Shown here one piece after another: positions 11,296 through 35,936 of a stretch of 64,000 bases of DNA. Made by a program: the position numbers and the translations under genes. The notes below the pieces were generated by a model. It saw nothing but the letters and a program-made list of their open reading frames with translations. It was not told where the DNA came from and ran no database searches. This stretch comes from Agathobacter sp. (GTDB taxonomy: Bacteria; Bacillota; Clostridia; Lachnospirales; Lachnospiraceae), in the NCBI GenBank assembly GCA_022775045.1, contig JALFLB010000031.1, positions 1 to 64,000 on the forward strand, written 5' to 3'. Numbering within the stretch: the first letter of the stretch is position 1; each line of letters opens with the position of its first letter.

Positions 11296-11490
11296 ATGGT
11301 ACATATCAACGGGAAGGATGAAGCTGCTGCAGGAATGACCGTGCAGGAATATCTCGGGAAAAATGAATATCCGCTGGAGTGGATTGTGGTCGAATGCAAT
11401 GAGGAGATTGTGCCGAAGGCAGATTACGCCACGAGACAGCTTCAGGATGGAGACATCGTCGAAATTGTCAGTTTTGTAGGCGGGGGTTGA
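11296..11490 (+). CDS. thiS: Sulfur carrier protein ThiS
   Basis: A 64-residue ubiquitin-fold carrier ending in VSFVGGG. Its C-terminal glycine is adenylated and turned into a thiocarboxylate that supplies sulfur for the thiazole ring of thiamine. The MVHINGK start and the conserved N-E-E-I-V-P segment are typical. ATG 11296 is preceded by GAAGGGAGG at a good distance, so I prefer it to an upstream in-frame ATG at 11254 that lies inside the palindrome. No thiF follows in this operon; a ThiF-like enzyme is encoded about 21 kb downstream in the sulfur island. Confidence 0.93.
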   Translation: MVHINGKDEAAAGMTVQEYLGKNEYPLEWIVVECNEEIVPKADYATRQLQDGDIVEIVSFVGGG

Positions 11491-19713: not shown

Positions 19714-19757
19714 AGACAAAGATTCAGACATGGAAGGATATGGAAGGAGCATTATTC

Positions 19758-21737: not shown

Positions 21738-22569
21738 GAAAACAAAAAAAGTAAGAGTGATCCCGGGGTATCACCTGACAATGGGAATTACGGTTACAAT
21801 GCTTTCTCTGATTGTATTGATACCGTTGGCATCGGTGTTTGTATATGCATTGAAACTCTCACCGGCGGAAATCTGGAAATTGATCTCGAAACCAACAGTA
21901 CTGCATGCGTTTCAGACCAGTATCTTGTGTTCCCTGGCAGCAGCTCTGATCAACTGTGTGTTTGGTGTAATCATTGCCTGGGTGCTTGTCAAATATGATT
22001 TTCCAGGCAAACGTATTCTCGACGGATGTATTGAACTCCCCTTTGCACTGCCGACTGCTGTGGCGGGTATTACATTATCAAAACTTTATTCCGAGACAGG
22101 TGCACTCGGGAAGCCTCTTGCGGCGCTTGGTATCAAGGTTTCTTACACCCGTTTGGGGTTAATCATTGCGCTGGTATTTATTGGGATTCCATTTGTTATC
22201 CGGGCAGTGCAGCCAGTGTTGGAGAAACTGGATCATCAGTACGAGGAGGCGGCATTCATGCTGGGTGCAACAAGGGCGCAGACCTTTCGCAGGGTCATCC
22301 TTCCAGAGATGCGTCCGGCAATCCTGACCGGCTTCGGACTGGCATTTGCAAGGGGGCTGGGTGAGTATGGAAGTGTCATTTACATTTCCGGCAACAGTGC
22401 AAAAGAGCAGACTCAGGTCATTTCCTACGTTATCATGCAAAAGCTTGGCTATATTGATTATGCCAGCGCAACCGCCATTGCGTTAGTGATGCTGATTTTG
22501 TCCTTTGTGTTGCTTTTGGCAGTTAATGTTGTGCAGATGCGGCAGGCGTCGAGGACGAACATACTGTAA
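21718..22569 (+). CDS. cysT: Sulfate ABC transporter permease CysT
   Basis: A 283-residue inner membrane permease with six helices and the EAA loop EEAAFMLGATRAQTFRRVILP (about residues 178-198), which contacts the ATPase CysA. I place the start at ATG 21718, inside the end of the binding-protein gene, because the N-terminus KSTVTKKTKKVRVIPGYH fits the family and GGAGC lies upstream; an earlier in-frame ATG exists. Pairs with CysW to form the channel. Confidence 0.93.
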   Translation: MKSTVTKKTKKVRVIPGYHLTMGITVTMLSLIVLIPLASVFVYALKLSPAEIWKLISKPTVLHAFQTSILCSLAAALINCVFGVIIAWVLVKYDFPGKRILDGCIELPFALPTAVAGITLSKLYSETGALGKPLAALGIKVSYTRLGLIIALVFIGIPFVIRAVQPVLEKLDHQYEEAAFMLGATRAQTFRRVILPEMRPAILTGFGLAFARGLGEYGSVIYISGNSAKEQTQVISYVIMQKLGYIDYASATAIALVMLILSFVLLLAVNVVQMRQASRTNIL

Positions 22570-22609
22570 TATTTCGAATGCAATTGCCAGGTAGATAGGA
22601 GAATTTTGT

Positions 22610-23470
22610 ATGAACAACAAAAGTGAAGAGAAGAAAAAGCACATAACAAAAATTATTCTGATCACCATCAGTTATCTCTTTATTGGTGTGATGCTGGTAC
22701 TTCCTCTTTTTTCCATTATCATAGGTGCTTTAAAAGAAGGCTTGGGTTTCTATTTCGAGGCAATCTCCACCGAGTATGTCAGAAGTGCATTGCTTGTTAC
22801 GCTTCTGGCAACCGTGATTGCCGTTGCAGTCAATACATTTTTCGGAATTGTGGCATCGTGGCTTCTGACGAAGTTTTCTTTTCGGGGAAAGCAGGTGCTT
22901 GCAACATTAATTGATATTCCGTTTTCGATTTCACCGGTTATTGTAGGGCTGGCATTCCTAATGACCTTCGGGCGGCTGGGGTGGACTTATCCGGCAATCC
23001 GCGCAATTAATCAGTTTTTTGGAACGAATATCAGGATTACGTTTGCACTGCCGGGGGTGGTGCTTGCAACAATCTTTGTGACATTTCCTTTTGTATCGCG
23101 AGAGGTCATTCCAATTCTGAATGCACAGGGAAAGGACGAGGAGGAAGCGGCAGCGCTCATGGGGGCAAGCGGATTAAAAATTTTTCGCAGGATTACACTT
23201 CCGCAGATGAAATGGGGATTGATCTATGGAATCATCCTCTGCAGTGCAAGAGCTCTTGGGGAGTTCGGGGCGGTCAACGCATTATCTAAGACAAGAGGGG
23301 AGACCTTCACACTTCCGCTGGAAATCGATGCGTTGTATATGTCGGGAACCGACAACTCAATTACGGCGGCGTTTGCGGTATCTTCCATACTGGTGCTGAT
23401 TGCGGTGTTGGTGCTGATCGTTCGCAATATATTTGAGTATCGCAGTAAGAACAAACAGACGGAGCGATAA
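22610..23470 (+). CDS. cysW: Sulfate ABC transporter permease CysW
   Basis: A 286-residue permease with six helices, the second channel subunit of the sulfate importer. The coupling loop EEEAAALMGASGLKIFRRITLP is at about 180-201, and FSISPVIVGLAF plus GEFGAVNALS are typical of CysW. The start follows GATAGGAG at a normal distance. Located between cysT and cysA in the usual order. Confidence 0.94.
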   Translation: MNNKSEEKKKHITKIILITISYLFIGVMLVLPLFSIIIGALKEGLGFYFEAISTEYVRSALLVTLLATVIAVAVNTFFGIVASWLLTKFSFRGKQVLATLIDIPFSISPVIVGLAFLMTFGRLGWTYPAIRAINQFFGTNIRITFALPGVVLATIFVTFPFVSREVIPILNAQGKDEEEAAALMGASGLKIFRRITLPQMKWGLIYGIILCSARALGEFGAVNALSKTRGETFTLPLEIDALYMSGTDNSITAAFAVSSILVLIAVLVLIVRNIFEYRSKNKQTER

Positions 23471-23481
23471 GGAGAAAACGA

Positions 23482-24540
23482 ATGTACGTGGAAATGAAAA
23501 ATATAAACAAAACATACGGGGATTTCAAAGCCTCCGACAATGTCAGTTTCGGCATTGAAAAAGGCAAGCTGGTGGCGCTTCTGGGTCCGTCCGGCAGTGG
23601 AAAGACTACGCTGCTACGCATGATCGCCGGACTTGAGTCACCAAACTCCGGAGATATTTATATTGATGGGCGCCGCGTCAACGATGTTCCGGCGGCAAAA
23701 AGGGGGATTGGATTTGTATTCCAAAGCTATGCACTTTTCCGCTATATGACGGTATATGACAATGTGGCGTTTGGTCTTGAATTGATGAAAATGCCCAAGA
23801 AAGAGATAAAAAAGAGAGTTACCGAACTTTTGGAGCTGACCGGACTTTCCGGAATGGAAAAGAGATATCCGAACCAGCTCTCCGGCGGACAGAGGCAGAG
23901 AGTTGCATTTGCGAGGGCGCTGGCACCGAATCCTCAGGTATTGCTTTTGGATGAACCCTTTGCGGCAATCGATGCGAAGGTGCGCACGGAGCTTCGGACG
24001 TGGCTGCGGGAGATGGTGACAAAGCTTGGTATCACAAGCATTTTTGTAACCCATGATCAGGATGAGGCAGTGGAGGTTGCGGATGAGATCATCATTACGA
24101 ATCATGGGCGGATTGAGCAGATGGGGACACCAATGGAGATTTATAAATCCCCCGATACACCGTTTGTTGCACAGTTTATCGGTCGCTCCTCTGTGGTGGA
24201 GCATTACGAGAGGCTGAGGGGGTTTGATCCGGTTGAAGGTGCAACGCAGGCGGTTGTAAGACCGGAATTCATCCGGGTTTCAAGAAGCGCACCGGACCGC
24301 TACATCAGTGCAACTGAGGACGGCATCGTAAAGGATGTGGTTTTTCGTGGCAACCACCTGGATGTGGTGGTGGACATCAATGGCATCCAGATTGTGGCAG
24401 AACGCTCACTGGAGAAGGATCCTGTGGAGATTGGCGAGCATGTGTATGCGCTGATCTACCGGCTTTACATATTTGATGAGCATCAGACTTACCTGGTGGA
24501 GAATCAGGAGATGCAGGAGGACGATGTATTTTACATTTAG
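23482..24540 (+). CDS. cysA: Sulfate ABC transporter ATP-binding protein CysA
   Basis: A 352-residue ATPase powering sulfate import. Walker A GPSGSGKT (35-42), signature LSGGQRQR, Walker B LLLDEPFAAID and the H-loop THDQDEA are all intact. A C-terminal TOBE-like regulatory domain fills about 235-352. The start at 23482 follows AAGGAG. The gene is 11 bases after cysW and 44 before the APS reductase genes. Confidence 0.94.
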   Translation: MYVEMKNINKTYGDFKASDNVSFGIEKGKLVALLGPSGSGKTTLLRMIAGLESPNSGDIYIDGRRVNDVPAAKRGIGFVFQSYALFRYMTVYDNVAFGLELMKMPKKEIKKRVTELLELTGLSGMEKRYPNQLSGGQRQRVAFARALAPNPQVLLLDEPFAAIDAKVRTELRTWLREMVTKLGITSIFVTHDQDEAVEVADEIIITNHGRIEQMGTPMEIYKSPDTPFVAQFIGRSSVVEHYERLRGFDPVEGATQAVVRPEFIRVSRSAPDRYISATEDGIVKDVVFRGNHLDVVVDINGIQIVAERSLEKDPVEIGEHVYALIYRLYIFDEHQTYLVENQEMQEDDVFYI

Positions 24541-24584: not shown

Positions 24585-26285
24585 ATGAAGATAGAAGAAA
24601 AGCAGATACTGCATACGGACATCTTAATCATTGGTGGTGGGACGGCAGGCTGCTATGCCGCCATGACAATCCGGGAACATTCTGATTATTCGGTTATTAT
24701 TGCAGAAAAGGCAAATATCAAGCGGAGCGGCTGTCTGGCAGCCGGTGTCAACGCATTGAATGCCTACATCACCAAGGGGCATGTCCCGCAGGATTATGTG
24801 GATTATGCTGACAAGGATGCAGACCATATTGTGCGTCAGGATCTCCTGCTTACCATGGCGGAGGGAGTAAACCGTGTAACGGCGAAGATGGAGCAGCTGG
24901 GACTGGTCATTTTAAAGGATGAAAATGGTGAGTATGTTGCAAGGGGAAACCGCAATATCAAGATTAACGGCGAGAACTTTAAACCGCTGCTTGCGGATGC
25001 AGTAAGCAGGTTAGATGATGTGACCGTCATCAATCAGCTGAACATCACGGACTATGTGGTGGAGAAAGGCAGCATCAAAGGCGCTTTCGGATTTTCAATC
25101 GCAGAGAACAAGGCCTATGAGATTCGAGCGAAAAAAGTGCTGATTGCTACAGGGGGAGCAGCAGGACTGTATCGACCGAACAATCCGGGCTTTTCCAGAC
25201 ATAAGATGTGGTACCCGCCATTTAACACGGGGGCGGGATATGCGATGGGCATCCGTGCAGGCGCAGAGATGACAACTTTTGAGATGCGCTTCATCGCTCT
25301 TCGCTGCAAAGATACTATCGCACCGACCGGAACAATTGCGCAGGGGGTTGGGGCGAAGCAGGTCAATTCGTTGGGCGATGTTTATGAAGATAAATACGGA
25401 TTGACCACTTCCCAACGTGTCTACGGCACAGTGAAGGAAAATCTGGAAGGAAGGGGACCGTGTTATCTCAGGACTGAGGGTATTTCGAAGGAGCAGGATG
25501 ATTCTTTGCGGAAGGCGTATCTGAACATGGCGCCGAGCCAGACACTCAAGTGGGTGGAGGCCGGAAAGAATCCAAGTGAACAGAACGTTGAAATTGAAGG
25601 AACCGAGCCTTACATTGTCGGCGGGCATACAGCCAGTGGCTACTGGGTGGATACGAATCGGGAGACGACGATTCACGGACTCTTTGCTGCGGGGGATGTG
25701 GCCGGCGGCTGTCCCCAAAAGTATGTGACCGGAGCCCTTGTGGAGGGCGAGATCGCAGCACTTCGCATGGTGGAGCAGCTGGATGCGGAAGCGGGAGCAC
25801 AGACAACCGGGAGCAGTGAGGAGCAGAAGCTTCTGGATGACAAAGTTGCAGAGTATGACAGTTTTCTGCAGAATGAGAAAGCCATGTTCACGGTAGAACA
25901 GCTGGAGGAAGCAATGCAGAAGGTCATGGATGCCTACGCAGGCGGAATCGGAAGCCATTATCAGTTCAACGAAAAGCAGCTGAAGATGGCGGATGAGAAA
26001 ATAAGACAGCTGCAGACGCTGGTGGAGAATGTGAATGCGGAGGATATGCATGAGCTGATGTTTGTTTATGAGCTGAAGGAGAGGCTGACCGTGTGTCTGT
26101 CCGTCATCGCGCATCTGGAGGCTCGCAAGGAGACCCGCTGGCACAGTTTCGCTGAGAATCTGGATTATCCGAATAAGAGTGATGAGTGGCTGTGTTATGT
26201 GAATTCCCGCATGGAAGACGGTGAATTGAAAATGATTTACCGGGATCTGGTCAAGAAAGGAGAGACCTATGAGCATTGCAATTGA
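24585..26285 (+). CDS. aprA: Adenylylsulfate reductase-like flavoprotein (AprA type)
   Basis: A 566-residue FAD enzyme of the AprA/fumarate-reductase flavoprotein family. The dinucleotide-binding motif IIGGGTAGCYAA is at about 14-25. The FAD-domain segments AKKVLIATGGAAGLY, FNTGAGYAMGIRAGAEM and HGLFAAGDVAGGCPQKYVTGALVEG follow. With the AprB-like ferredoxin it overlaps, and with CysD/CysN next to it, it most likely reduces APS to sulfite. No CysH or APS kinase is present, so this is an assimilatory use of an enzyme type known mainly from dissimilatory sulfate reducers. On sequence alone a fumarate-reductase-like role could not be excluded; the context decides. Confidence 0.85.
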   Translation: MKIEEKQILHTDILIIGGGTAGCYAAMTIREHSDYSVIIAEKANIKRSGCLAAGVNALNAYITKGHVPQDYVDYADKDADHIVRQDLLLTMAEGVNRVTAKMEQLGLVILKDENGEYVARGNRNIKINGENFKPLLADAVSRLDDVTVINQLNITDYVVEKGSIKGAFGFSIAENKAYEIRAKKVLIATGGAAGLYRPNNPGFSRHKMWYPPFNTGAGYAMGIRAGAEMTTFEMRFIALRCKDTIAPTGTIAQGVGAKQVNSLGDVYEDKYGLTTSQRVYGTVKENLEGRGPCYLRTEGISKEQDDSLRKAYLNMAPSQTLKWVEAGKNPSEQNVEIEGTEPYIVGGHTASGYWVDTNRETTIHGLFAAGDVAGGCPQKYVTGALVEGEIAALRMVEQLDAEAGAQTTGSSEEQKLLDDKVAEYDSFLQNEKAMFTVEQLEEAMQKVMDAYAGGIGSHYQFNEKQLKMADEKIRQLQTLVENVNAEDMHELMFVYELKERLTVCLSVIAHLEARKETRWHSFAENLDYPNKSDEWLCYVNSRMEDGELKMIYRDLVKKGETYEHCN

Positions 26286-26583
26286 TTCAATGAAATGTAA
26301 AGGGTGCAGAAAATGTACTACCGTCTGTCCTGGAAGCTTGATTGAACTGGATGAGAATAAAAAAGCGTACATCCGGTACCCGAAGGATTGCTGGGGCTGT
26401 GCTTCGTGTATCAAGGAGTGTGCCTTTGGAGCAATCGCCTTTTATCTGGGGGCGGACATTGGCGGCATGGGAAGTAAGATGACTGTGTCGACAGAGGGAG
26501 ATCTCCTGAACTGGCAGATTGAAAAGACAGATGGAACAAAAGAAGTAATCGCAGTCAACAAAAAGGACGCGAACAAATATTAA
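26269..26583 (+). CDS. aprB: Adenylylsulfate reductase beta-like ferredoxin subunit (AprB type)
   Basis: A 104-residue iron-sulfur protein with two [4Fe-4S] motifs: [13 protein letters not shown] (C9-C12-C15-C19) and [11 protein letters not shown]. It overlaps aprA by 17 bases and would feed electrons to its FAD. Dissimilatory AprB is about 150 residues with a C-terminal tail that wraps the alpha subunit; here only some 45 residues follow the clusters, so the interface must be smaller. Eleven bases separate it from cysD. Confidence 0.88.
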
Positions 26584-26593
26584 GGAGGACGTT

Positions 26594-27496
26594 ATGAGTG
26601 AATTATCCCATCTTGACGCATTAGAAGCGGAAGCAATTTATATTATCCGTGAAGTGGCAGCTGAGTGTGAAAAGCCGGTTATGCTGTATTCCATTGGAAA
26701 GGACAGCTCAGTCATGCTGCATCTGGCAATGAAAGCATTTTATCCGGAGAAACCACCATTTCCATTTCTTCATGTGAATACCACATGGAAATTCAAGGAG
26801 ATGATTCAGTTCCGTGATGAGACAGCAAAGAAGTTAGGCATTGAAATGCTGGAGTACATCAACGAGGACGGCGTAAAGCAGGGCATCAATCCATTTGACC
26901 ACGGCAGCGCCTACACGGATATCATGAAGACGCAGGCCTTGAAGCAGGCGTTAAATAAATATGGATTTACGGCGGCTTTCGGCGGCGGCCGGAGAGACGA
27001 GGAGAAGTCCCGTGCGAAAGAACGTATCTTTTCCTTCCGAAACGAGAACCACGCATGGGACCCGAAGAATCAGAGACCGGAGATGTGGAAACTGTACAAC
27101 TCCAAGATCCATAAGGGAGAGAGCATCCGTGTGTTCCCAATCTCCAACTGGACGGAGGCCGATATCTGGGAGTACATCAAGCGGGAGAATATTGATATTG
27201 TACCGCTTTACTTTGCAAAGGAGCGACCGGTGATTGAGCGGGATGGCAATCTCATTATGGTGGATGATGACCGTCTGAAGCTTCGCCCGGGAGAGAAGAT
27301 TGAGTACAAGAGCGTGCGATTCCGTACGCTGGGCTGCTACCCGCTGACCGGAGCAACCGAATCCACAGCCACCACGCTGGATGAGATTATCGATGAAACA
27401 TTGAGTGCTGTTGAGTCTGAGCGTACCACCCGTGTTATCGACAACGACGGCGGTGCTGCCAGCATGGAAAAGAGAAAGAGGGAGGGATACTTCTAA
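26594..27496 (+). CDS. cysD: Sulfate adenylyltransferase subunit CysD
   Basis: A 300-residue ATP pyrophosphatase-type enzyme that adenylates sulfate to APS, driven by GTP hydrolysis on CysN. The PP-motif [13 protein letters not shown] lies at about 34-46, [16 protein letters not shown] near 130-145, and [12 protein letters not shown] near 248-259. Length is that of the family. It sits between the APS reductase genes and cysN. Confidence 0.96.
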
Positions 27497-27497
27497 G

Positions 27498-29192
27498 ATG
27501 AGCGGATTATTGAAATTTATTACCTGTGGCAGTGTAGATGATGGAAAGTCCACACTGATCGGACATATTTTATATGATTCCAAGCTGTTATACACAGATC
27601 AGGAAAAAGCCCTGGAACTGGACAGCAAGGTGGGAAGCCGTGGCGGTGCCATTGACTATTCCCTCCTTCTGGATGGTCTGATGGCGGAGCGTGAGCAGGG
27701 CATTACCATCGATGTTGCCTACCGCTATTTTACAACCGACAAGAGAAGCTTTATCGTAGCAGATACACCGGGACATGAGGAGTACACCAGAAACATGGCA
27801 GTTGGTGCATCCTTTGCAGACCTTGCGGTCATCCTGGTGGATGCCAAGCAGGGTGTGCTGGTTCAGACGAGACGCCACGCGAGAATCTGTGCCCTAATGG
27901 GAATCAAATATTTTGTATTTGCAGTCAATAAGATGGATCTCGTGGATTACAGCGAGGGTCGTTTCAAAGAAATTGTGGGTCAGATTGAGGAGCTGGCAAA
28001 GGAGCTTTCTCTTGCCAGTGTCAAGATTATTCCGGTCTCTGCCACAGAGGGCGACAATGTGACCAAGCGTTCCGAAAATATGCCTTGGTATCAGGGAGAG
28101 GTTCTATTGTCTTACCTGGAGGAGATAGATGTCAGTGAGAAAAAGCAGGAGGAAGGCTTCTATCTTCCGGTACAGCGTGTCTGCCGTCCGGATCATACCT
28201 TCCGTGGTTTCCAGGGGCAGATAGAGAGTGGAAGTGTTTCTGTGGGCGATGAGATTGTCACCCTTCCAAGCCGTGAGCACGCGAAGGTAAAAACCATCCT
28301 TGTGGGGGATAGAGAATCTCAGAGCGCCGATGCCGGGCGTCCGGTTACCATCCAGCTGGACAAGGAAGTGGATGTATCGAGAGGTTGCGTACTTACAAAG
28401 GGTACAAATCTTCCAATCAGCAAGAATCTGACAGCAACAATCCTGTGGATGGATGATGAGGAACTGACCGTTGGCAAGGATTACCTGGTGAAGATCGGGA
28501 CCAAGACGATTCCGGGTGTGCTCAAGAACATCCAGTATAAGATTGATGTGAATACCGGTGAGTTCATTCCGGTGGGACGCCTCAGAAAGAATGAGATAGC
28601 GGTTTGTGACCTGGTGCTTCAGGAGGAGATTGTTCTGGATGCGTTCTTAAAGCATAAGACATTAGGTGAATTAATCCTGATTGACCGAATCACCAACATG
28701 ACCTCCGCCTGCGGTGTTGTTGAGAATCCGGAACTTGATGAGCATAAGGATTTGAAGTGTGCATTCGTATCCGGCAGCCTGAAGGCTAACGGTGATATTT
28801 TTGAGGAGTTCTATTATGATCTGGAGAGTATGAATGTTTTCAAGGTGCAGCCTTCCAACAAGACTTACACCATTGGGGATGAGATCCCGGTTGAGGGCGA
28901 GAGCTATCACTATCCGGATGACTTTGATGTGGTTGTTCTGCGGGAGCAGGTGGCCGTGTCTGTAAGAGATAAAAAGATTATCTCAATTATTCCGCTGGCA
29001 GATTACAACTATGCAGATGTGCCGGTTATCAATGGACGTGGCTTTGCGGTTCATGTGTCGAGTGCAGAGGATGTTGCATCCTTTAAGGCAGAGCTTGCTG
29101 CACAGGGTAAGCAGATTTCAGAGGAGTTCTTCAATAAGTGGGTGGACTTTGAAACATACCGCAGAATTGTGTTTAAGAACGAGCGCTGGTAG
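27498..29192 (+). CDS. cysN: Sulfate adenylyltransferase GTPase subunit CysN with non-kinase C-terminal extension
   Basis: A 564-residue GTPase partner of CysD. G1 is CGSVDDGKSTLIG (about 9-21), G3 is DTPGHEEYTRN, and G4 is NKMD. Two beta-barrel domains run to about residue 415. The remaining 145 residues contain no P-loop, so this is not the CysNC fusion with APS kinase, in agreement with APS reduction by AprAB. The extension is of unknown function. Start 27498 is chosen by homology to the usual KFITCGSVDD beginning, with GGAGGG upstream inside cysD. Last gene of the operon before a terminator. Confidence 0.94.
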   Translation: MSGLLKFITCGSVDDGKSTLIGHILYDSKLLYTDQEKALELDSKVGSRGGAIDYSLLLDGLMAEREQGITIDVAYRYFTTDKRSFIVADTPGHEEYTRNMAVGASFADLAVILVDAKQGVLVQTRRHARICALMGIKYFVFAVNKMDLVDYSEGRFKEIVGQIEELAKELSLASVKIIPVSATEGDNVTKRSENMPWYQGEVLLSYLEEIDVSEKKQEEGFYLPVQRVCRPDHTFRGFQGQIESGSVSVGDEIVTLPSREHAKVKTILVGDRESQSADAGRPVTIQLDKEVDVSRGCVLTKGTNLPISKNLTATILWMDDEELTVGKDYLVKIGTKTIPGVLKNIQYKIDVNTGEFIPVGRLRKNEIAVCDLVLQEEIVLDAFLKHKTLGELILIDRITNMTSACGVVENPELDEHKDLKCAFVSGSLKANGDIFEEFYYDLESMNVFKVQPSNKTYTIGDEIPVEGESYHYPDDFDVVVLREQVAVSVRDKKIISIIPLADYNYADVPVINGRGFAVHVSSAEDVASFKAELAAQGKQISEEFFNKWVDFETYRRIVFKNERW

Positions 29193-29263: not shown

Positions 29264-29292
29264 GATCCATTATTTTTTATGGTAAAAACTGG

Positions 29293-29344
29293 TTGACAAA
29301 ACCCTGGGAAAGGGGTATAGTATAAAACATATTAAACCTACTAG
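29293..29344 (+). promoter_or_regulatory. Promoter and putative operator of the metY-hcy operon
   Basis: TTGACA (29293-29298), a 17-base spacer, TATAGT (29316-29321). TTAAACCTACTAG (29332-29344) lies just downstream of the expected start and shares TTAAACCTA with the cysK promoter. A repressor bound there would block the polymerase. No SAM riboswitch is present. Confidence 0.68.
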
Positions 29345-29374
29345 ATAACTATGATTTATAAAAGGAGCGACAAA

Positions 29375-30616
29375 ATGGGCTTCAACACAGAACTTTTGCA
29401 CGGGGCGAAAGAAGGGGATCCTGCTACAGGAGCGACACTGACTCCGGTATATCAGTCCAGTGCATTTTATCAGCCATCGGCGGAGCAGCACGAAAAGCTG
29501 TTCAACAATAAGGCGAATGGCTATTCCTATACGAGAATCAACAATCCGACGATTGCGGCTTTTGAAGAACGCATGACAGTGCTTGAGAAGGGACTTGCCT
29601 CTGTAGCGTGTTCCTCTGGTATGGCTGCGATCACGGATACACTTTTGAATATTGTAGGTGCGGGAAATGAGATTGTGACCAGTAACAGCCTGTATGGCGG
29701 AACCATCGATCTCTTCCATGATCTGGAGGCCTTTGGCATCACCACAAGGTTTGTGGACGGAGCCGATTTGGGAGAGGTGGAGTCAGCAATCAATGACAAG
29801 ACCAGGGCCATATTCGCGGAGACAATCGGAAACCCGAAGCTGGATGTGACGGACATTCCCGTCTGGGCAAAGCTGGCACATGATCATGGACTTCCACTCA
29901 TCATTGACAATACAGTGGCCACCGCGTTTTTGGTGAAGCCCTTGACATTGGGAGCTGATATTGTGATTAACTCCACATCGAAATATGTCAATGGCAACAG
30001 CAGTGCAATCAGCGGAGTAATTACGGACAGTGGAAAGTTCAAGTGGGATGCCGGGCGGTATCCGGGCTTGAAACCTTATGCGAAGTTTGGTCCATTCGCT
30101 TTTACCGCGAAGCTTCGGAACGGTCTGTTCCGCAACATGGGGGCCTGTATGGCACCACAGACCGCTTTTTATAATCTGGTGGGAATGGAGACTCTGGGGC
30201 TTCGCATGGAGCGTGCCTGTGACAATGCGGCGCAGCTTGCCGCGTACTTAGATCTTCTCCCAGGTGTGAACGTCAACTATCCGGGACTGGCATCCAGCCC
30301 ATGGTACGACACAGCAACACGATTGTTGAATGGCCGCTATGGTGCAATTTTCACACTTCGGGTAGGAAGTAAGGACAAGGCTTTTGCAATCATGAATTCG
30401 CTTAAGATTCCGATGATCGTATCGAATATCGGGGACACGAAGACCTTGATTGTACATCCGTCCTCCACATTGAGTGCTCACAGCACAGAGCAGGAGAAAA
30501 AGGATGCAGCAGTGTATGACGATATGATCAGAGTGAGCGTCGGCATCGAAGATATTGAGGATCTGATTCACGATTTTGAGGCGGCAATCGTGGGTGCCGG
30601 GGTCGGTGAAAGCTAA
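29375..30616 (+). CDS. metY: O-acetylhomoserine sulfhydrylase MetY
   Basis: A 413-residue PLP enzyme of the Cys/Met metabolism family that makes homocysteine from O-acetylhomoserine and a sulfur donor. Visible are TLTPVYQSSAF, SSGMAAITDTLL (about 76-87), NTVATAFLVKPLTLGADIVINSTSKYVNG with the PLP lysine in STSKY (near 207), and the C-terminal HPSSTLSAH. ATG 29375 follows AAAGGAG. In the known thiocarboxylate route MetY takes sulfur from HcyS; here hcyS-like, E1 and JAMM genes lie in the same operon 1.5 kb downstream. No metX (homoserine acetyltransferase) is in the window. Confidence 0.93.
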   Translation: MGFNTELLHGAKEGDPATGATLTPVYQSSAFYQPSAEQHEKLFNNKANGYSYTRINNPTIAAFEERMTVLEKGLASVACSSGMAAITDTLLNIVGAGNEIVTSNSLYGGTIDLFHDLEAFGITTRFVDGADLGEVESAINDKTRAIFAETIGNPKLDVTDIPVWAKLAHDHGLPLIIDNTVATAFLVKPLTLGADIVINSTSKYVNGNSSAISGVITDSGKFKWDAGRYPGLKPYAKFGPFAFTAKLRNGLFRNMGACMAPQTAFYNLVGMETLGLRMERACDNAAQLAAYLDLLPGVNVNYPGLASSPWYDTATRLLNGRYGAIFTLRVGSKDKAFAIMNSLKIPMIVSNIGDTKTLIVHPSSTLSAHSTEQEKKDAAVYDDMIRVSVGIEDIEDLIHDFEAAIVGAGVGES

Positions 30617-30720
30617 GGCATCTGTGAGAAAACAGAACATTGCGAATACATAGGAAAACTGATAAGGTTAACAGAGATAGAAATGATTCATACATAAATG
30701 ATAAGAAAAAGGAGAGCGTT

Positions 30721-31581
30721 ATGGCAGTTGATTATGCAGCATTAAAAAAGGGCGGTTTTATGCGCCAGAAGCAGAAGAACCATTTTTCATTAAGACTTGC
30801 AGTGGTAGGAGGAAATCTCACTGCGGAGAATTTAAAGATTATTGCTGAGGTAGCGGAGAAGTACGGAGATGGACATGTCCATCTGACCTCCCGTCAGAGC
30901 GTGGAGATTCCGTTTATCAAACTGGAACAGGTTGAGGAAGTGAAGGAGGCCCTTGCTACCGGTGGCTGTAAGCCGGGGGTCTGTGGTCCGAGAGTCCGCA
31001 CCATCACAGCCTGTCAGGGCTCTGAAATCTGCCCGAGCGGCAACATTGATACCTACGGTCTTGCGAAAAAGCTGGATGAGCGTTACTTTGCAAGAGAACT
31101 TCCACACAAGTTCAAGTTCGGTGTGACCGGCTGTCAGAACAATTGCTTAAAGGCGGAAGAGAACGATGTGGGAATCAAGGGTGCTTCCATCGTGGAGTGG
31201 GATGAGGATGCATGTATTATGTGCGGTGTTTGCGAGAAAACCTGCCGCGAAAGTGCCATTTCCGTGAAAGATGGAAAGATTGATTTAGATAGAGAGAAAT
31301 GTAACTACTGTGGACGCTGTGTGAAGGCATGTCCGACCGAGGCATGGAAGGGAACACCGGGATTTTTGGTTTCCTTCGGCGGACTGTTCGGGAACCGTGT
31401 GTACAAGGGAGAGAATTATCTTCCGGTCATTACATCGGAGGAACAGTTATTTGCAGTAACAGACGCAGCAATCCAGTTTTTTGATGACAATGCCAATCCG
31501 GGCGAGCGTTTCCGTATGACCATCGAGCGCGTGGGTCTGGATGCATTTAAGAAAGTAATAGAGGAGGCATATCATGGCTGA
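30721..31581 (+). CDS. Small siroheme sulfite reductase with two ferredoxin clusters
   Basis: A 286-residue one-piece sulfite (or nitrite) reductase. The ferredoxin-like half-domain HFSLRL...HLTSRQSVEIP comes first. The siroheme-[4Fe-4S] cysteines are C98 and C104 (CQGSEIC) and C138 and C142 (CQNNC). Two inserted [4Fe-4S] motifs follow: C165, C168, C171, C175 and C194, C197, C200, C204. It is half the size of CysI or the Dsr subunits, as in low-molecular-weight assimilatory enzymes. The start is ATG 30721 after AAAAGGAGAG. Placed between metY and tusA, it should reduce the sulfite made by AprAB to sulfide. Confidence 0.9.
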   Translation: MAVDYAALKKGGFMRQKQKNHFSLRLAVVGGNLTAENLKIIAEVAEKYGDGHVHLTSRQSVEIPFIKLEQVEEVKEALATGGCKPGVCGPRVRTITACQGSEICPSGNIDTYGLAKKLDERYFARELPHKFKFGVTGCQNNCLKAEENDVGIKGASIVEWDEDACIMCGVCEKTCRESAISVKDGKIDLDREKCNYCGRCVKACPTEAWKGTPGFLVSFGGLFGNRVYKGENYLPVITSEEQLFAVTDAAIQFFDDNANPGERFRMTIERVGLDAFKKVIEEAYHG

Positions 31582-31819
31582 TTATGAAATTGATGAAAGA
31601 GTAGATATTACCGATGTGGTCTGCCCGATGACCTTTGTGAAGGCGAAAGTGGCAATGGAGGAAATCGAAGTCGGTCAAGTGCTTGCAGTCACCATGAACG
31701 ACGGGGAACCGGTTCAGAATGTACCGCGCAGCTTTAAGGAAGAAGGGCAGCAGGTGTTAAAGCTGATTGATAATGGCAACGGCACCTATGACCTGATTGT
31801 AAAGAAGTTAGAGGAGTAA
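31574..31819 (+). CDS. TusA/SirA-like sulfur transfer protein
   Basis: An 81-residue protein of the TusA fold with the signature VVCPMTFVKAKVAM; C17 followed by P18 is the expected persulfide-carrying cysteine. Members pass sulfane sulfur between enzymes. It overlaps the sulfite reductase gene by 8 bases and is three bases from the thioredoxin gene. I infer it carries sulfur between the reductase and the carrier-activating enzyme; it need not act in tRNA thiolation here. Confidence 0.9.
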   Translation: MADYEIDERVDITDVVCPMTFVKAKVAMEEIEVGQVLAVTMNDGEPVQNVPRSFKEEGQQVLKLIDNGNGTYDLIVKKLEE

Positions 31820-31822
31820 CAG

Positions 31823-32140
31823 ATGGCAGCAAGAATCAGTAAAGACAGCTTTGAACAGGAAGTACTGAAAAGTGAGCTTCCGGTGATCGTGGATTTCTAT
31901 TCCGATTCCTGCATCCCTTGTAAGCAGCTTTCCCCAATTTTAGGAGATATCGAGGATGATTACGAGGATAAGATCAAGGTCTTCAAGGTAAATGTGAATT
32001 TTGATGAAGAGCTGGCCGAACAGTATGAAGTGCTGGCATCCCCGACCTTGGTATTTTTCAAGGATGGAAAGGAAGTGGACCGCATCCGCGGGCTGGTAAA
32101 GAAACAGGAATTAAGTGAGCACGTAGAAAAAATGTTATAA
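31823..32140 (+). CDS. Thioredoxin with CIPC active site
   Basis: A 105-residue thioredoxin. The active site is C30-I-P-C33 in SDSCIPCKQLSP, unlike the usual CGPC. The rest of the fold is standard (DFYSDS, cis-Pro loop ASPTLVFFKDGKEVDRIRG). Its own thioredoxin reductase follows in the same operon, so the pair probably forms a dedicated redox couple for sulfur chemistry, for example reducing persulfides on TusA or disulfides on the activating enzyme. Confidence 0.92.
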   Translation: MAARISKDSFEQEVLKSELPVIVDFYSDSCIPCKQLSPILGDIEDDYEDKIKVFKVNVNFDEELAEQYEVLASPTLVFFKDGKEVDRIRGLVKKQELSEHVEKML

Positions 32141-32154
32141 AAAAGGAGTATAGT

Positions 32155-32364
32155 ATGAAAGTAACAATTGCAGGTAACACTAAGGATATTGCAGAAAATA
32201 CAACAGTTGCACAGCTTGTTGTGGACGAGAAGGTGGACAATCCGGAGTACGTGACTGTTACCATCAACGATGAGTTTGTGGAACATCATGATTTTGAAAA
32301 TGTGGTATTAAAGGAGAATGATGTTGTTGAGTTCTTATACTTCATGGGAGGTGGAAGATTCTAA
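32155..32364 (+). CDS. ThiS-like sulfur carrier with masked C-terminus (HcyS-like)
   Basis: A 69-residue ubiquitin-fold carrier that resembles ThiS, but after the glycines G65-G66-G67 it carries two extra residues, R68 and F69. Such capped carriers (HcyS of Wolinella, QbsE of Pseudomonas, CysO-like proteins) cannot be activated until a JAMM protease trims them. Removing Arg-Phe would leave F-x-G-G-G, the same ending as the ThiS encoded at 11296. The next genes are an E1-like enzyme (overlapping by one base) and a JAMM protease. Inferred role: thiocarboxylate sulfur donor for homocysteine and possibly cysteine. Confidence 0.88.
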   Translation: MKVTIAGNTKDIAENTTVAQLVVDEKVDNPEYVTVTINDEFVEHHDFENVVLKENDVVEFLYFMGGGRF

Positions 32365-33173
32365 TGGCATTTACGAATGAACAGATGGAGCGTTACAGCC
32401 GTCACATCATCCTTCAGGAGGTTGGTGTGAAGGGGCAGAAGAAGCTCTTAAACGGAAAAGTATTAATTATCGGAGCGGGTGGACTTGGCGCACCGGCAGC
32501 TATGTATCTGGCAGCAGCCGGAGTAGGAACGATTGGTATTGTCGATGCAGATGAGGTTGATTTATCCAATTTGCAGAGACAGATCATCCATGGAACTGCA
32601 GATGTTGGAAAAGCAAAGGTAAAGTCTGCAAAAGAAACAATGAATGCTATGAATCCGGATGTACAGGTCAATACATACCGTGAGTTTGTAACATCAGAAA
32701 ACATCATGGATCTTATTAAGGATTATGATTTCATCATTGATGGAACCGACAATTTTCCAGCAAAATTTTTGATTAACGATGCCTGCGTTATGGCGAAAAA
32801 GCCGTTTTCCCATGCGGGAATCATCCGATTTAAGGGACAGCTGATGACCTATGTGCCTGGCGCAGGACCATGTTATCGTTGTGTATTTAAGAATCCGCCG
32901 CCAAAGGATGCGGTTCCGACCTGTAAGCAGGCCGGGGTCATCGGTGCGATGGGGGGTGTGATCGGAAGTCTTCAGGCAATGGAGGCCGTCAAGTATCTGC
33001 TCGGCGTGGGAGACCTGCTGACAGGTAAGCTTCTTACCTTCGATGCGCTTAAGATGGAATTCCATACAGTCAAGCTGCCGAAGGCAGATAAGAACTGTGC
33101 AATCTGCGGCGAACATCCAACTATCACAGAGCTGATTGATTATGAGCAGGTAGAGTGCCCTGACCATAAATAG
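32364..33173 (+). CDS. ThiF/MoeB-like carrier-activating enzyme (HcyF-like)
   Basis: A 269-residue E1-like adenylyltransferase. The nucleotide motif GAGGLG (37-42), the RQIIHGTADVGKAK region and DGTDNFPAKFLIND are intact. Zinc ligands are C170/C173 and C245/C248. A cysteine in PTCKQAG (C187) matches the position of the catalytic or sulfur-carrying cysteine of the family. There is no rhodanese domain, so sulfur must come from another protein such as TusA or directly from sulfide. It overlaps the carrier gene by one base. As the only ThiF-type gene in the window it may also charge the ThiS of the thi operon. Confidence 0.92.
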   Translation: MAFTNEQMERYSRHIILQEVGVKGQKKLLNGKVLIIGAGGLGAPAAMYLAAAGVGTIGIVDADEVDLSNLQRQIIHGTADVGKAKVKSAKETMNAMNPDVQVNTYREFVTSENIMDLIKDYDFIIDGTDNFPAKFLINDACVMAKKPFSHAGIIRFKGQLMTYVPGAGPCYRCVFKNPPPKDAVPTCKQAGVIGAMGGVIGSLQAMEAVKYLLGVGDLLTGKLLTFDALKMEFHTVKLPKADKNCAICGEHPTITELIDYEQVECPDHK

Positions 33174-33185
33174 AAAGAGGATATT

Positions 33186-33599
33186 ATGATACAACTAAGC
33201 AAAGCAGACTATGAAAAGATCATCGTCCATGCCAAGGAGCATCTTCCAGAGGAGGCCTGTGGCCTGATTGCAGGCACCAAAGAGGGCGATGTCAAGAAAA
33301 TTGAAAAGGTCTATCTACTGACCAATATTGACCATACCAACGAGCATTTTTCCATGGATCCAAAGGAGCAGCTGGCAGCGGTCAAGGATATGCGCGCCAA
33401 CGGCTACACGCCGCTGGGCAACTGGCATTCCCATCCGGAGTCCCCGGCTCGTCCATCCGAGGAGGATAAGCGTTTGGCCTATGATCCGACAGTCAACTAT
33501 CTGATTCTTTCGCTGATGAATCCGGAGGAGCCGGTGATCAAAGCGTTTGATATCGATAAGGATCGGAATGTGACGGTGGAGGAAATTTCAATCATTTAG
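33186..33599 (+). CDS. JAMM/MPN+ metalloprotease (HcyD-like)
   Basis: A 137-residue zinc protease of the Mov34/MPN/PAD-1 family. The JAMM signature is complete: E23 in EEACGLIAG, then H81-x-H83 in NWHSHPESP, with S91 and D94. It is a minimal domain without fusions, like the prokaryotic enzymes that trim ubiquitin-fold carriers (Mec+, QbsD, HcyD). It follows the E1 gene by 12 bases. Its probable substrate is the Arg-Phe cap of the adjacent carrier. Confidence 0.9.
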   Translation: MIQLSKADYEKIIVHAKEHLPEEACGLIAGTKEGDVKKIEKVYLLTNIDHTNEHFSMDPKEQLAAVKDMRANGYTPLGNWHSHPESPARPSEEDKRLAYDPTVNYLILSLMNPEEPVIKAFDIDKDRNVTVEEISII

Positions 33600-33627
33600 G
33601 AATGAAGCTCGTGAAATGGAGAGTTAT

Positions 33628-34545
33628 ATGTACGATTTAGTGATTATTGGAAGCGGTCCGGCAGGATTATCGGCAGCGGTATATGCAAAGAGAGCTTGTC
33701 TGGATCTCGTGATGGTCGAAAAGGAGCCGATGGGCGGAGGACAGATGATTTACACTCAGGAGGTGGATAATTATCTGGGGCTTCCCGGAATGGGCGGATT
33801 TGATCTGTCACAGAAATTCGAGGAACATGCTAAGAAAATGGGGGTTCTAACTCAAAATGGAGAGGTTGCGAATATCGAGAAGGTCAGGGATTACTGGCAG
33901 GTTGTTTTGGAGGCTGGCGAGATACTTGAGACCAGAACCGTGCTTCTTGCAACCGGTGCAAGCCATAGAAAGCTCTTGGTGCCTGGGGAGGAGAGACTGA
34001 CCGGAGCCGGTGTATCCTACTGTGCAACCTGTGACGGGGCTTTTTTCCGGGACAAGACAGTGGCGGTTGTCGGCGGTGGCGATGTGGCGCTTGAGGATGC
34101 GCTTTATCTTGCCAAAGGCTGTAAGCAGGTGTATCTGATTCATCGCAGACAGGAGCTGCGCGGTGCGAAGATTCTGCAGGAGCAGGTTGCAGGAGAGTCA
34201 AAGATTACATTCCTTCCGGATACCGTTATCACGCAAATTTACGGAGATAACAAGGTTGACGGAGTGACGCTTTTCAATAAAAAGGATGAGAGTACAAAGG
34301 AGCTTGCATTGGATGGTGTCTTTATCGCTGTCGGTATGCATCCTCAGACCGAGACGGTTGAGAAGCTTCTTTGCCTTGATCATGGTTATGTCAGGGCGGG
34401 AGAAGATGGAATTACAGATCAGCCGGGATTGTTTGTAGCTGGGGATGTCCGCACCAAGAGGCTTCGTCAGATTGTGACGGCGGTTGCGGATGGAGCTAAT
34501 GCTGTCACAAGTATTATCGATTATCTGTCACAGAGAGAAAACTAG
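33628..34545 (+). CDS. trxB: Thioredoxin reductase
   Basis: A 305-residue NAD(P)H:flavin disulfide reductase. FAD motif GSGPAG (8-13), redox pair C132-A-T-C135, NAD(P)-binding VVGGGDVALEDALYLA, and the second FAD motif GLFVAGDV are present. The second nucleotide motif and surrounding HRRQELRGAKIL fit NADPH-type enzymes. I use ATG 33628 (GGAGAG upstream); an ATG four codons earlier is possible. It probably serves the CIPC thioredoxin encoded 1.5 kb upstream. Confidence 0.92.
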   Translation: MYDLVIIGSGPAGLSAAVYAKRACLDLVMVEKEPMGGGQMIYTQEVDNYLGLPGMGGFDLSQKFEEHAKKMGVLTQNGEVANIEKVRDYWQVVLEAGEILETRTVLLATGASHRKLLVPGEERLTGAGVSYCATCDGAFFRDKTVAVVGGGDVALEDALYLAKGCKQVYLIHRRQELRGAKILQEQVAGESKITFLPDTVITQIYGDNKVDGVTLFNKKDESTKELALDGVFIAVGMHPQTETVEKLLCLDHGYVRAGEDGITDQPGLFVAGDVRTKRLRQIVTAVADGANAVTSIIDYLSQREN

Positions 34546-34561
34546 GAAAGGTGGTGAAATC

Positions 34562-34993
34562 ATGCTGATATCTTCAAGAGGCCAATATGCAATCCGCATC
34601 CTTCTGGATCTGGCAATCCATGAGGATGGGGGAGAAGCAATTAATGTCAAGACAATTGCACAGCGGCAGGAGCTTTCCGAAAAATATATGGAGCAGATTT
34701 TAAGTGTTCTTCAAAAAGCAGGCTTTGTTATCAGTACCAGAGGGTATCATGGTGGTTATCATCTGTCCGGAAAGCCGGAGAACTATTCTGTGGGGAAAAT
34801 TCTCCGCACAGTGGACGGACCCCTTATTCCGGCAAACCAGCAGACTTCGGGAGAGAATAAGCCGGTGGATTTGGTAGTTAATGAGCTGTGGGTCAATCTG
34901 CAGGATAAGATTGAGAAGACGCTCGATGATGTAACACTTTTGGATCTGATGAACAGTTATAATGAAAAACTATGCTTTAATTATATGATATAG
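34562..34993 (+). CDS. Rrf2-family regulator, CymR-like
   Basis: A 143-residue winged-helix repressor of the Rrf2 family (MLISSRGQYAIRILLDLA, recognition helix SEKYMEQILSVLQKAG, wing STRGYHGGYHL). The three cysteines that hold the Fe-S cluster in IscR and NsrR are missing, so a metal-free CymR-type sensor is more likely. In Bacillus and Staphylococcus CymR binds CysK to repress sulfur genes when cysteine is plentiful; here cysK follows directly, 10 bases later. Likely targets are the two TTAAACCTA-bearing promoters in this window. ATG 34562 has AAAGGTGG upstream. Confidence 0.88.
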   Translation: MLISSRGQYAIRILLDLAIHEDGGEAINVKTIAQRQELSEKYMEQILSVLQKAGFVISTRGYHGGYHLSGKPENYSVGKILRTVDGPLIPANQQTSGENKPVDLVVNELWVNLQDKIEKTLDDVTLLDLMNSYNEKLCFNYMI

Positions 34994-35003
34994 GAGGTAG
35001 CAC

Positions 35004-35936
35004 ATGGCAAAGCTGCAACAGGGAATTCTCGGAACAATTGGTCATACACCGCTTGTCGAGGTACCTAATTTTGAAAAACTGTATGATTTGCATGCGCATC
35101 TGGCTGTAAAGATTGAGTCCTTCAATCCGGGGGGGAGTGTGAAAGACCGTATTGCTCTTGCGATGGTTGAGGATGCGGAATGTACAGGAAAATTAAAGCC
35201 GGGAGCAACAATCATCGAGCCGACCTCAGGGAATACCGGAATTGGGATTGCAGCAGTATCTGCCGCGAAGGGCTATCATGCAATTATGGTCATGCCGGAG
35301 ACAATGAGTGTTGAGCGCCGTAAGCTATTAAGTGCTTATGGGGCAGAGGTGATATTGACTCCGGGACATTTGGGGATGAAGGGAGCCATAAACAAGGCAG
35401 CGGAATTGAATGAGGAAATAGAGAATTCAGTGATCTTAAGCCAGTTTACCAACCCCTCTAATCCAAAAGCTCATGTGGCAACCACAGGACCGGAAATCTG
35501 GGAGCAGACAGACGGAGAAATTGATTTCTTTGTTGCAGGTGTCGGAACCGGAGGAACAGTATCAGGAGTGGGTATGTACTTAAAATCGAAAAATCCGAAG
35601 ATTAAAGTCGTTGCGGTGGAACCGGAAGGCTCACCGGTGCTTACAAAAGGCACGGCAGGACCACATATGATTCAGGGAATCGGTGCCGGATTTGTGCCGG
35701 ATACTCTCAATCGTTCTATTTATGATGAGGTGATTGATGTGGAAAATGAGTCGGCATTTGCATGCGCGAGAGAGTTGGCAAAGGCGGAAGGAATCCTGGT
35801 TGGAATCTCCTCGGGAGCGGCACTTTCCGCAGCCGTTGAGCTTGCAAAAAGACCGGAGAATGCAGGAAAGACAATTGTGGCGCTTCTCCCGGATACTGGA
35901 GAACGTTATCTGTCCACGATGCTGTTTAATAAATAG
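35004..35936 (+). CDS. cysK: Cysteine synthase (second copy)
   Basis: A 310-residue PLP-dependent O-acetylserine sulfhydrylase with K47 in [16 protein letters not shown] (about 70-79), and [13 protein letters not shown] (about 174-186). It is clearly related to the enzyme at 19758 but not a recent duplicate, as many positions differ. Placement right after the Rrf2 gene suggests a double role, catalysis and CymR corepression. It could alternatively accept sulfur from the thiocarboxylate carrier, as CysM of mycobacteria does; the sequence does not decide. TAGGAGG precedes the start. Confidence 0.94.

What the first reader, a model, noticed from the sequence alone, without database searches (positions are those of the whole stretch)
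29293..35936. A protein-thiocarboxylate sulfur assimilation operon (capped ThiS-like carrier, E1, JAMM protease) with MetY, sulfite reductase and CysK
Seen: one operon encodes MetY, a small siroheme sulfite reductase, TusA, thioredoxin, a ThiS-like carrier ending G-G-G-R-F, a ThiF-like E1, a complete JAMM protease, thioredoxin reductase, an Rrf2 regulator and CysK. Known: HcyS/HcyF/HcyD with MetY make homocysteine from a carrier thiocarboxylate in Wolinella succinogenes; QbsE/QbsD remove a two-residue cap before activation. Inference: this gut Firmicute uses a ubiquitin-like, protease-activated carrier rather than free sulfide to build homocysteine, and perhaps cysteine. The TusA and CIPC thioredoxin between reductase and carrier are additions to the simple scheme.
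Basis: partly seen in the sequence, partly recalled or inferred. Interest (0 to 1): 0.9.

Follow-up and report, generated by a model that had tools for sequence, protein, structure and literature searches.

The report
Protease-trimmed sulfur carrier for methionine
This bacterium carries a known type of gene set that appears to load sulfur onto a small ubiquitin-like protein to make methionine, and comparison with related bacteria suggests that the same protease and loading enzyme also serve vitamin B1 synthesis.

Summary
In detail: 29293-35936 holds a sigma-70-type promoter, MetY, a small siroheme sulfite reductase, TusA, a CIPC thioredoxin, a ThiS-like carrier ending FLYFMGGG-RF, an E1 without rhodanese, a complete JAMM protease, TrxB, Rrf2 and CysK. 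Sulfate uptake/reduction genes lie just upstream.

The system is of a known kind: Iyer et al. 2006 listed such operons, TusA (SirA) included, and the Wolinella HcyS/HcyF/HcyD/MetY route is the biochemical precedent (recalled). The cysteine branch is not supported.

Two comparative results look new. In four genomes E1+JAMM stand apart from any methionine carrier found, and all four have capped or fused ThiS. So JAMM and E1 probably mature and charge ThiS too. The window fits: its ThiS (11296-11490, uncapped) has no ThiF found in the genome.

All evidence is sequence-based.

The parts
29293..29321 (+). sigma-70-type promoter TTGACA-17-TATAGT before metY
   Evidence: a similar promoter and the following AACATATTAAACCTA-TAGATAA-TATG stretch are in Roseburia faecis L044
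29375..30616 (+). MetY, O-acetylhomoserine sulfhydrylase type, short form
   Evidence: PF01053; below the TIGR01326 cut-off; shorter than most solved MetYs, same net length as 3ri6
30721..31581 (+). small siroheme sulfite reductase with inserted ferredoxin domain
   Evidence: PF01077, PF03460, Fer4 with two stretches; nearest solved chains are F420-dependent sulfite reductases 7np8/7npa
31574..31819 (+). TusA (SirA) sulfur carrier, VCPMT motif
   Evidence: PF01206; TusA in 45 of 46 loci
31823..32140 (+). thioredoxin with SCIPC site
   Evidence: PF00085; SCIPC or SCVPC in 63 of 75 operon thioredoxins, 5 of the 75 without a readable motif
32155..32364 (+). ThiS-like sulfur carrier, FLYFMGGG followed by cap RF
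   Evidence: PF02597, TIGR01683; cap comparison
32364..33173 (+). E1-like adenylating enzyme (ThiF/MoeB type, no rhodanese)
   Evidence: PF00899; NCBIfam; only ThiF/MoeB-type E1 found in this genome
33186..33599 (+). JAMM metalloprotease with complete motif
   Evidence: PF14464; invariant residues; nearest solved chain 2kks
33616..34545 (+). thioredoxin reductase (TrxB-like)
   Evidence: PF07992; TIGR01292 just below cut-off
34562..34993 (+). Rrf2-family regulator, CymR-like
   Evidence: PF02082; CymR model 109 bits, below its cut-off of 195
35004..35936 (+). CysK cysteine synthase A (CysK2)
   Evidence: TIGR01139 over cut-off
18632..19582 (+). serine O-acetyltransferase-like CysE
   Evidence: TIGR01172 below cut-off
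19740..20687 (+). CysK1
   Evidence: TIGR01139 over cut-off
20712..24540 (+). sulfate ABC transporter (substrate-binding, CysT, CysW, ATPase)
24585..26583 (+). adenylylsulfate reductase AprA (PRK06854) and a ferredoxin-like AprB
   Evidence: AprA 950 bits, cut-off 557; Fer4 domains (the name AprB is by position)
26594..29192 (+). sulfate adenylyltransferase CysD and CysN
11296..11490 (+). thiamine ThiS, stops right after FVGGG (uncapped); no ThiF beside it
   Evidence: PF02597
11546..14135 (+). ThiG, a ThiH-like radical SAM enzyme and ThiE
   Evidence: the name ThiH is recalled; one search shows Radical_SAM and BATS

Best explanation
The operon is a protein-thiocarboxylate route to homocysteine. 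Sulfate is taken up and reduced by CysD/CysN, AprAB and the small sulfite reductase. The carrier is translated with a short cap after GGG; the JAMM protease removes the cap; the E1 adenylates the free C-terminus, which becomes a thiocarboxylate with sulfur from sulfite reductase or TusA; MetY joins it to O-acetylhomoserine; the JAMM then cuts the same bond again to release homocysteine. The JAMM and E1 also act on thiamine ThiS: the E1 replaces ThiF, and where ThiS carries a cap or is fused to ThiG the JAMM frees its GGG end. Shown here: gene content, motifs, caps on every carrier read, P1' bias, and the JAMM-dependent distribution of ThiS caps and of ThiF loss. Inferred: every chemical step and the physical cleavage.
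For: Gene content and motifs. Conserved context in 46 loci. No carrier read ends at GGG: 0 of 105 rows (93 distinct) and 0 of 11 further ones. P1' in the 93: Q 30, R 23, S 17, A 15, C 5, H, M and T 1 each; ThiS caps and fusions begin with C, S, A or Q. ThiS capped or fused in 16 of 40 JAMM+ and 0 of 128 JAMM- genomes, Fisher p 7e-12 without phylogenetic correction; ThiF_fam2 missing in 15 of the 16. On a ThiG tree the capped or fused ThiS fall in about seven places, each among JAMM+ rows. In four JAMM+ genomes (G004, G032, G047, G434) no methionine carrier was found at E 0.001 and the E1+JAMM pair lies without MetY, sulfite reductase or TusA in the DNA held (G032 only 3.9 kb, beside CysE); all four have capped or fused ThiS and no ThiF_fam2. 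The window's genome has one ThiF/MoeB-type E1 plus a TcdA-like protein, no MoaE, a MetA-family and a MetH-like gene. The closest solved relative of the carrier (2k5p/3cwi) also has a residue after GGG, K, perhaps before a tag.
Against: No reaction was tested. The genome has two other MetY-type enzymes that may use free sulfide. The window's own ThiS is uncapped, so here the thiamine link rests on the missing ThiF alone, in an assembly 90% complete. 24 of 40 JAMM+ genomes have uncapped ThiS, so a cap is not needed. G378 has E1+JAMM with sulfite reductase, TusA and MetY but no carrier found in 16 kb, keeps ThiF, and its ThiS is uncapped. L113 has a capped carrier and no JAMM in its 20 kb locus. 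19 of 128 JAMM- genomes with a ThiS-type row also lack ThiF_fam2. The sulfite reductase was not found in 11 and MetY in 3 of 46 loci. Iyer et al. 2006 list ThiS-ThiG fusions in many proteobacteria; whether those have a JAMM was not checked.
Confidence: 0.7

Rival explanations
1. The JAMM is mainly the product-release hydrolase (carrier-homocysteine amide), as Mec+ is for CysO-Cys. Caps are drift: once such an enzyme is present, loss of the stop codon after GGG is harmless and caps build up without a function of their own.
For: Caps vary in length and sequence and 56 of 105 are a single residue; 47 of 93 first cap codons are one step from a stop codon. A single-residue cap looks chemically like the product adduct (inference).
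Against: None of 116 carrier rows read is uncapped, whereas drift should leave some (inference); 13 of 17 Ser codons at P1' are AGC, not one step from a stop; JAMM+ genomes that keep ThiF have uncapped ThiS in 16 of 17.
Confidence: 0.35
2. MetY and CysK here work with free sulfide; the carrier, E1 and JAMM serve thiamine or another thiolation.
For: Other MetY-type enzymes and ordinary CysKs are present; four genomes have E1+JAMM away from MetY.
Against: MetY lies within 6 kb of the carrier in 43 of 46 loci; operon MetY matches 3ri6 over 403 positions with no net length change, while most other solved MetYs are 12-16 residues longer (2cb1 only 5); G321, G429 and G215 have both the carrier and a separate uncapped ThiS, and seven of the 145 relatives have the carrier but no thiamine ThiS found.
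Confidence: 0.15
3. The operon makes cysteine from the charged carrier through CysK2.
For: CysK2 is the last gene of the operon; CysO/CysM of Mycobacterium is a precedent (recalled).
Against: CysK2 within 6 kb in 6 of 46 loci; CysK2 scores as CysK, not CysM; some relatives carry a separate CysO-like-E1-rhodanese fusion near CysE, CysK or MetY, and the window's genome shows no such second E1.
Confidence: 0.07
4. The link between ThiS caps and JAMM is only shared ancestry within a few lineages.
For: 13 of the 16 capped or fused cases lie in one family (f1), 11 of them in one genus; G004 and G047 are near neighbours on the tree.
Against: Capped or fused ThiS occurs in four families (f1, f21, f33, f71) and about seven places on the ThiG tree, interleaved with JAMM- ThiF+ uncapped rows; the caps differ, and fusions occur in four genomes at three places on the tree.
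Confidence: 0.12

Closest known systems
[quoted passage not shown] paper not held, details recalled; cited in PMC6225789 and PMC5764234, passages seen)
   Same: Capped ThiS-like carrier, E1, JAMM, MetY, sulfite reductase and sulfate genes in one cluster (recalled); MetY of the same net length as 3ri6 (its Wolinella origin recalled).
   Different: Cap is RF here (a single Ala in HcyS, recalled); CIPC thioredoxin, TrxB, Rrf2 and CysK in the operon; AprAB; likely sharing of JAMM and E1 with thiamine ThiS.
Row 4e operons of Iyer, Burroughs and Aravind 2006 (PMC1779556, passages seen)
   Same: Same core gene set in low-GC Gram-positives, including SirA (TusA) and an E1 without rhodanese.
   Different: [quoted passage not shown] the passages seen do not describe caps on thiamine ThiS; AprAB-type reductase here.
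QbsE/QbsD of thioquinolobactin synthesis (recalled)
   Same: JAMM removes a two-residue cap before charging.
   Different: Siderophore pathway, different acceptor.
CysO/Mec+/CysM of Mycobacterium tuberculosis (recalled)
   Same: JAMM hydrolyses a carrier-amino acid adduct.
   Different: Makes cysteine; CysO is not capped (recalled).
TtuC of Thermus thermophilus, one E1 for TtuB, MoaD and ThiS (PMC3980101, passages seen)
   Same: Precedent for one E1 shared by thiamine and another sulfur carrier.
   Different: No ThiS precursor processing by JAMM is described in the passages seen.
BilA/BilC (PMC11354881, passage seen)
   Same: JAMM-type protease exposes the C-terminal glycine of a ubiquitin-like precursor in bacteria.
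   Different: A four-gene ubiquitination-type operon, not sulfur transfer.

Membership tests
Iyer 2006 row 4e sulfur-assimilation UBL operon | ThiS/MoaD-like protein, JAB and E1 encoded together | tested here: met
Iyer 2006 row 4e sulfur-assimilation UBL operon | E1 lacks rhodanese; SirA/TusA present | tested here: met
   (only PF00899 in the E1; PF01206 present)
Iyer 2006 row 4e sulfur-assimilation UBL operon | sulfite reductase, MetY, ATP sulfurylase, sulfate transporter | tested here: met
Iyer 2006 row 4e sulfur-assimilation UBL operon | PAPS reductase and adenylylsulfate kinase (listed components) | tested here: inconclusive
   none among the 20 genes scanned, which hold an AprA-type reductase instead; the rest of the genome was not searched, and the authors' name may cover CysD
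HcyS/HcyD/HcyF/MetY homocysteine route | carrier with residues after the C-terminal glycines | tested here: met
   FLYFMGGG-RF; 0 of 105 rows end at GGG
HcyS/HcyD/HcyF/MetY homocysteine route | JAMM with complete catalytic motif beside carrier and E1 | tested here: met
HcyS/HcyD/HcyF/MetY homocysteine route | MetY of the Wolinella (3ri6) type | tested here: inconclusive
   same net length as 3ri6 (403 to 403 positions) where most other MetYs are 12-16 longer, yet 3ri6 is only rank 7 by score; no tree was made
HcyS/HcyD/HcyF/MetY homocysteine route | cap removal, thiocarboxylate formation and transfer by MetY | not testable with these tools
   needs protein chemistry
CysO/Mec+/CysM cysteine route | CysM-type synthase linked to the carrier | tested here: not met
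   CysK2 below the CysM cut-offs; CysK2 match near the carrier in 6 of 46 loci
Thiamine ThiS/ThiF system | carrier ends exactly at GG and sits with ThiF/ThiG | tested here: not met
   the operon carrier is capped and no thi gene is adjacent; the separate ThiS at 11296 is the thiamine one

The most novel reading that the evidence does not exclude
In these Clostridia one JAMM protease and one E1 form a common maturation-and-charging station for several ubiquitin-like sulfur carriers. Thiamine ThiS has come under it repeatedly: ThiF was lost, and ThiS then became a precursor with a cap or a ThiS-ThiG polyprotein that must be cut at GGG before it can carry sulfur, a bacterial parallel of ubiquitin-precursor processing inside vitamin B1 synthesis. 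In some lineages thiamine is the pair's only client left.
Probability: 0.55. Interest if true: 0.75.

Novelty: new variant of a known kind. Interest (0 to 1): 0.56.

Why it matters
If the ThiS result holds, thiamine synthesis in many of these bacteria involves a deubiquitinase-type protease, which the 2006 survey did not find in thiamine pathways, and carrier caps gain a testable rule: any tail after GGG, with a preferred first residue.

Tried and rejected
Cysteine branch: rejected for lack of CysK conservation and of a CysM match. Moco as the E1's client: no MoaE found in the genome. Upstream alignment for an Rrf2 operator: only R. faecis aligned; most chosen windows missed the metY start, so no motif is claimed. 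Literature: the listings (titles and starts of abstracts; capped at 40 of 687, 15 of 19, 12 of 21) showed no paper on caps of thiamine ThiS or JAMM in thiamine synthesis, and searches returned nothing; 'ThiS' also matched the word 'this'. The statement that this is unreported rests on those searches of an open-access library only. Structure prediction was not run.

Rows dropped or assigned: weak JAMM hits (G099; G185, G397, G524 in the class sample) were counted as JAMM-negative. G414, whose second match was not listed, and G241 and G409, with only one match, next to the JAMM, were left out of the ThiS table. The class count uses the 150 rows listed; 16 of the 147 matching genomes had only unlisted rows and were not read. 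In the class sample the second match of a JAMM+ genome was taken as thiamine ThiS; ThiG next to it was checked only in fetched loci. Two JAMM- rows ending LLAGG (G237, one of G322) are probably MoaD; leaving them out changes nothing. Some of the 11 further carriers may come from genomes also among the named loci. One genome (the window's own) is twice among the 105 carrier rows.
Full report
What is there. On the + strand the window holds a sulfate-assimilation block in two parts. The first (18632-29192) encodes a CysE-like acetyltransferase, CysK1, a sulfate ABC transporter, an AprA-type adenylylsulfate reductase with a small ferredoxin, CysD and CysN. The second, the finding, starts with TTGACA-17-TATAGT at 29293 and encodes MetY, a small siroheme sulfite reductase with an inserted ferredoxin domain, TusA, a thioredoxin with SCIPC, a ThiS-like carrier ending FLYFMGGGRF, an E1, a JAMM protease, TrxB, an Rrf2 regulator and CysK2. 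The nearest named relatives of the carrier are from Lachnospiraceae, among them Roseburia faecis; that the host is a gut Lachnospiraceae member is inferred from this.

Conservation. In the 46 of these loci with at least 6 kb on both sides of the carrier, counting matches of 40% identity or more on the same strand, the E1 is present in 46, JAMM in 45, TusA in 45, MetY in 43, Trx in 37, the sulfite reductase in 35, AprA in 27 and TrxB in 19 (18 within 6 kb), while CysK2 is within 6 kb in 6. So the core is carrier, E1, JAMM, TusA and MetY; CysK is not part of it.

Caps. Every carrier read has FLYFMGGG or a one-letter variant of it and then at least one more residue: 105 rows, tail lengths 1 (56 rows), 2 (30), 3 to 6 (16), 8, 10 and 25 (one each). 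Ninety-three are distinct; P1' is Q 30, R 23, S 17, A 15, C 5, H 1, M 1, T 1. Eleven further carriers from a class-wide sample are capped too, one with N at P1'. The search patterns used the residues up to FMG and an internal stretch, not the cap. A preserved cleavage point with a free but biased P1' is what a protease cutting after GGG would leave. The mature end is therefore most likely GGG, and RF the cap (inference).

Thiamine ThiS. The window also encodes thiamine ThiS, ThiG, a ThiH-like enzyme and ThiE (11296-14135) without ThiF beside them. The genome has three matches to the ThiF family: the operon E1, a TcdA-like protein (below the model's cut-off) and a weak hit inside a malic-enzyme-like frame (the last name is by inspection). 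The operon E1 passes the cut-off of the ThiF model TIGR02356. Among 145 relatives, 44 have a thiamine ThiS; 21 of these have the JAMM and 13 of the 21 have a ThiS with a tail (CR, A, C, Q, SGA, an 11-residue tail) or a ThiS-ThiG fusion through GGG, while 0 of the 23 without the JAMM do. ThiF_fam2 over its cut-off is missing in 17 of 21 against 2 of 23. Fisher p values are 3.9e-6 and 1.6e-6, not corrected for ancestry.

Replication. In 393 genomes drawn evenly from the class (at least 90% complete), 23 have the JAMM at over 100 bits; 20 of them have a thiamine ThiS with a readable end. Three are capped or fused (G510 tail SC, G485 tail C, G434 fusion) and all three lack ThiF_fam2. All 108 JAMM- genomes among the 150 listed rows end at GG: 92 rows by a stop at the cap position and 17 rows fetched and read. 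Sixteen of the 147 matching genomes had only unlisted rows. The stop column agreed with the sequence in 30 of 30 loci. Merged without duplicates: 16 of 40 JAMM+ against 0 of 128 JAMM-; within JAMM+, 15 of 23 without ThiF_fam2 and 1 of 17 with it. On a ThiG tree of 49 genomes the capped or fused ThiS fall in about seven places, next to uncapped ThiF+ JAMM- rows (21 of 46 inner branches are well supported).

E1 and JAMM without a methionine carrier. In five JAMM+ genomes no methionine carrier was found at E 0.001: G004, G032 and G047, G434 and G378. In G004, G047 and G434 the E1+JAMM pair lies outside any MetY-sulfite reductase-TusA operon in the 8 to 19 kb held; in G032 it follows CysE on a 3.9 kb contig. 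These four have ThiS tails CR and CR or ThiS-ThiG fusions, and none has ThiF_fam2 over the cut-off. G378 is the exception: the pair sits with sulfite reductase, TusA and MetY, ThiF is present and ThiS is uncapped. G004 and G047 are close relatives, so the four are perhaps three independent cases.

How it most likely works. Sulfate becomes sulfite and then sulfide or a TusA persulfide. The JAMM removes RF; the E1 adenylates the GGG end and sulfur is loaded; MetY adds the thiocarboxylate to O-acetylhomoserine (a MetA-family enzyme is present; its acyl donor was not tested); after an S-to-N shift the JAMM cuts the amide and frees homocysteine for the MetH-like enzyme. The dual JAMM role is recalled from Wolinella. 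That P1' lacks acidic, aromatic and proline residues and is almost never beta-branched fits a pocket that must also accept homocysteine (inference). The thioredoxin and TrxB may keep TusA or the E1 cysteine reduced (inference). The same JAMM and E1 then serve ThiS. That ThiF+ JAMM+ genomes keep ThiS uncapped in 16 of 17 suggests that ThiF loss comes first and caps follow (inference).

Known or new. The operon type is known: Iyer et al. 2006 list it, with TusA always present, and Wolinella gives the chemistry (recalled; cited in two papers whose passages were seen). A shared E1 has a precedent in Thermus TtuC. Iyer et al. suggested that a JAB protein might free ThiS or MoaD from fusions but reported its complete absence from thiamine pathways. 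The tie between JAMM and capped or fused thiamine ThiS was seen in none of the listings of the ten literature searches. Hence new variant of a known kind.

Limits. Everything is sequence comparison. The genome is a 90% complete assembly, so a missing ThiF could be a gap. Two other MetY-type enzymes mean methionine need not depend on this route. The window's own ThiS is uncapped. L113 lacks a JAMM near a capped carrier; the rest of that genome was not searched. The Fisher tests ignore ancestry: 13 of the 16 capped or fused cases are in one family.

Noticed in passing
L071 4586-6061, L094 4676-6172, L106 13153-14625, L047 3823-5277: Natural fusions of a MoaD/CysO-like domain (ending AGG|A or AGG|S), a MoeB-type E1 and a rhodanese, in loci with CysE, CysK or MetY and, in three of the four (not L047), beside a second JAMM; Pfam on three of the four proteins confirms the domains. 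The internal AGG would also need cutting.
   Followed up: partly
L288 3032-4245 and L283 2491-3543 (G434): E1+JAMM pair outside any sulfur operon in a genome whose only carrier found is a ThiS-ThiG fusion; by eye this E1 lacks the cysteine of the window E1's PTCKQAG.
   Followed up: partly
L295 8523-12388 (G378): E1-JAMM-sulfite reductase-TusA-MetY operon in which no carrier was found in 16 kb.
   Followed up: no
L216 509-1375 (G028): A MoeB-type E1 (58% to the operon E1) sits between ThiS and ThiG in place of ThiF.
   Followed up: no
29322-29350: Stretch just after the -10 box, shared with Roseburia faecis (AACATATTAAACCTA-TAGATAA-TATG), a candidate Rrf2 operator.
   Followed up: no
29215-29265: Inverted repeat around AATCGCTTA...TAAGCGATTTTTT between cysN and metY looks like a terminator by eye; the scan did not report it.
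   Followed up: no
9024-9295: T-box leader (RF00230) before a carbon-starvation-type transporter at 9386 (transporter named by inspection).
   Followed up: no
31823-32140 and related loci: The operon thioredoxin has SCIPC or SCVPC instead of the usual WCGPC (recalled) in 63 of 75 related operons, a possible dedicated partner of TusA or the E1.
   Followed up: partly
PDB 2k5p/3cwi and 2kks: Deposited as ThiS and as an uncharacterized protein; by sequence they are close to the carrier and the JAMM of this system.
   Followed up: no
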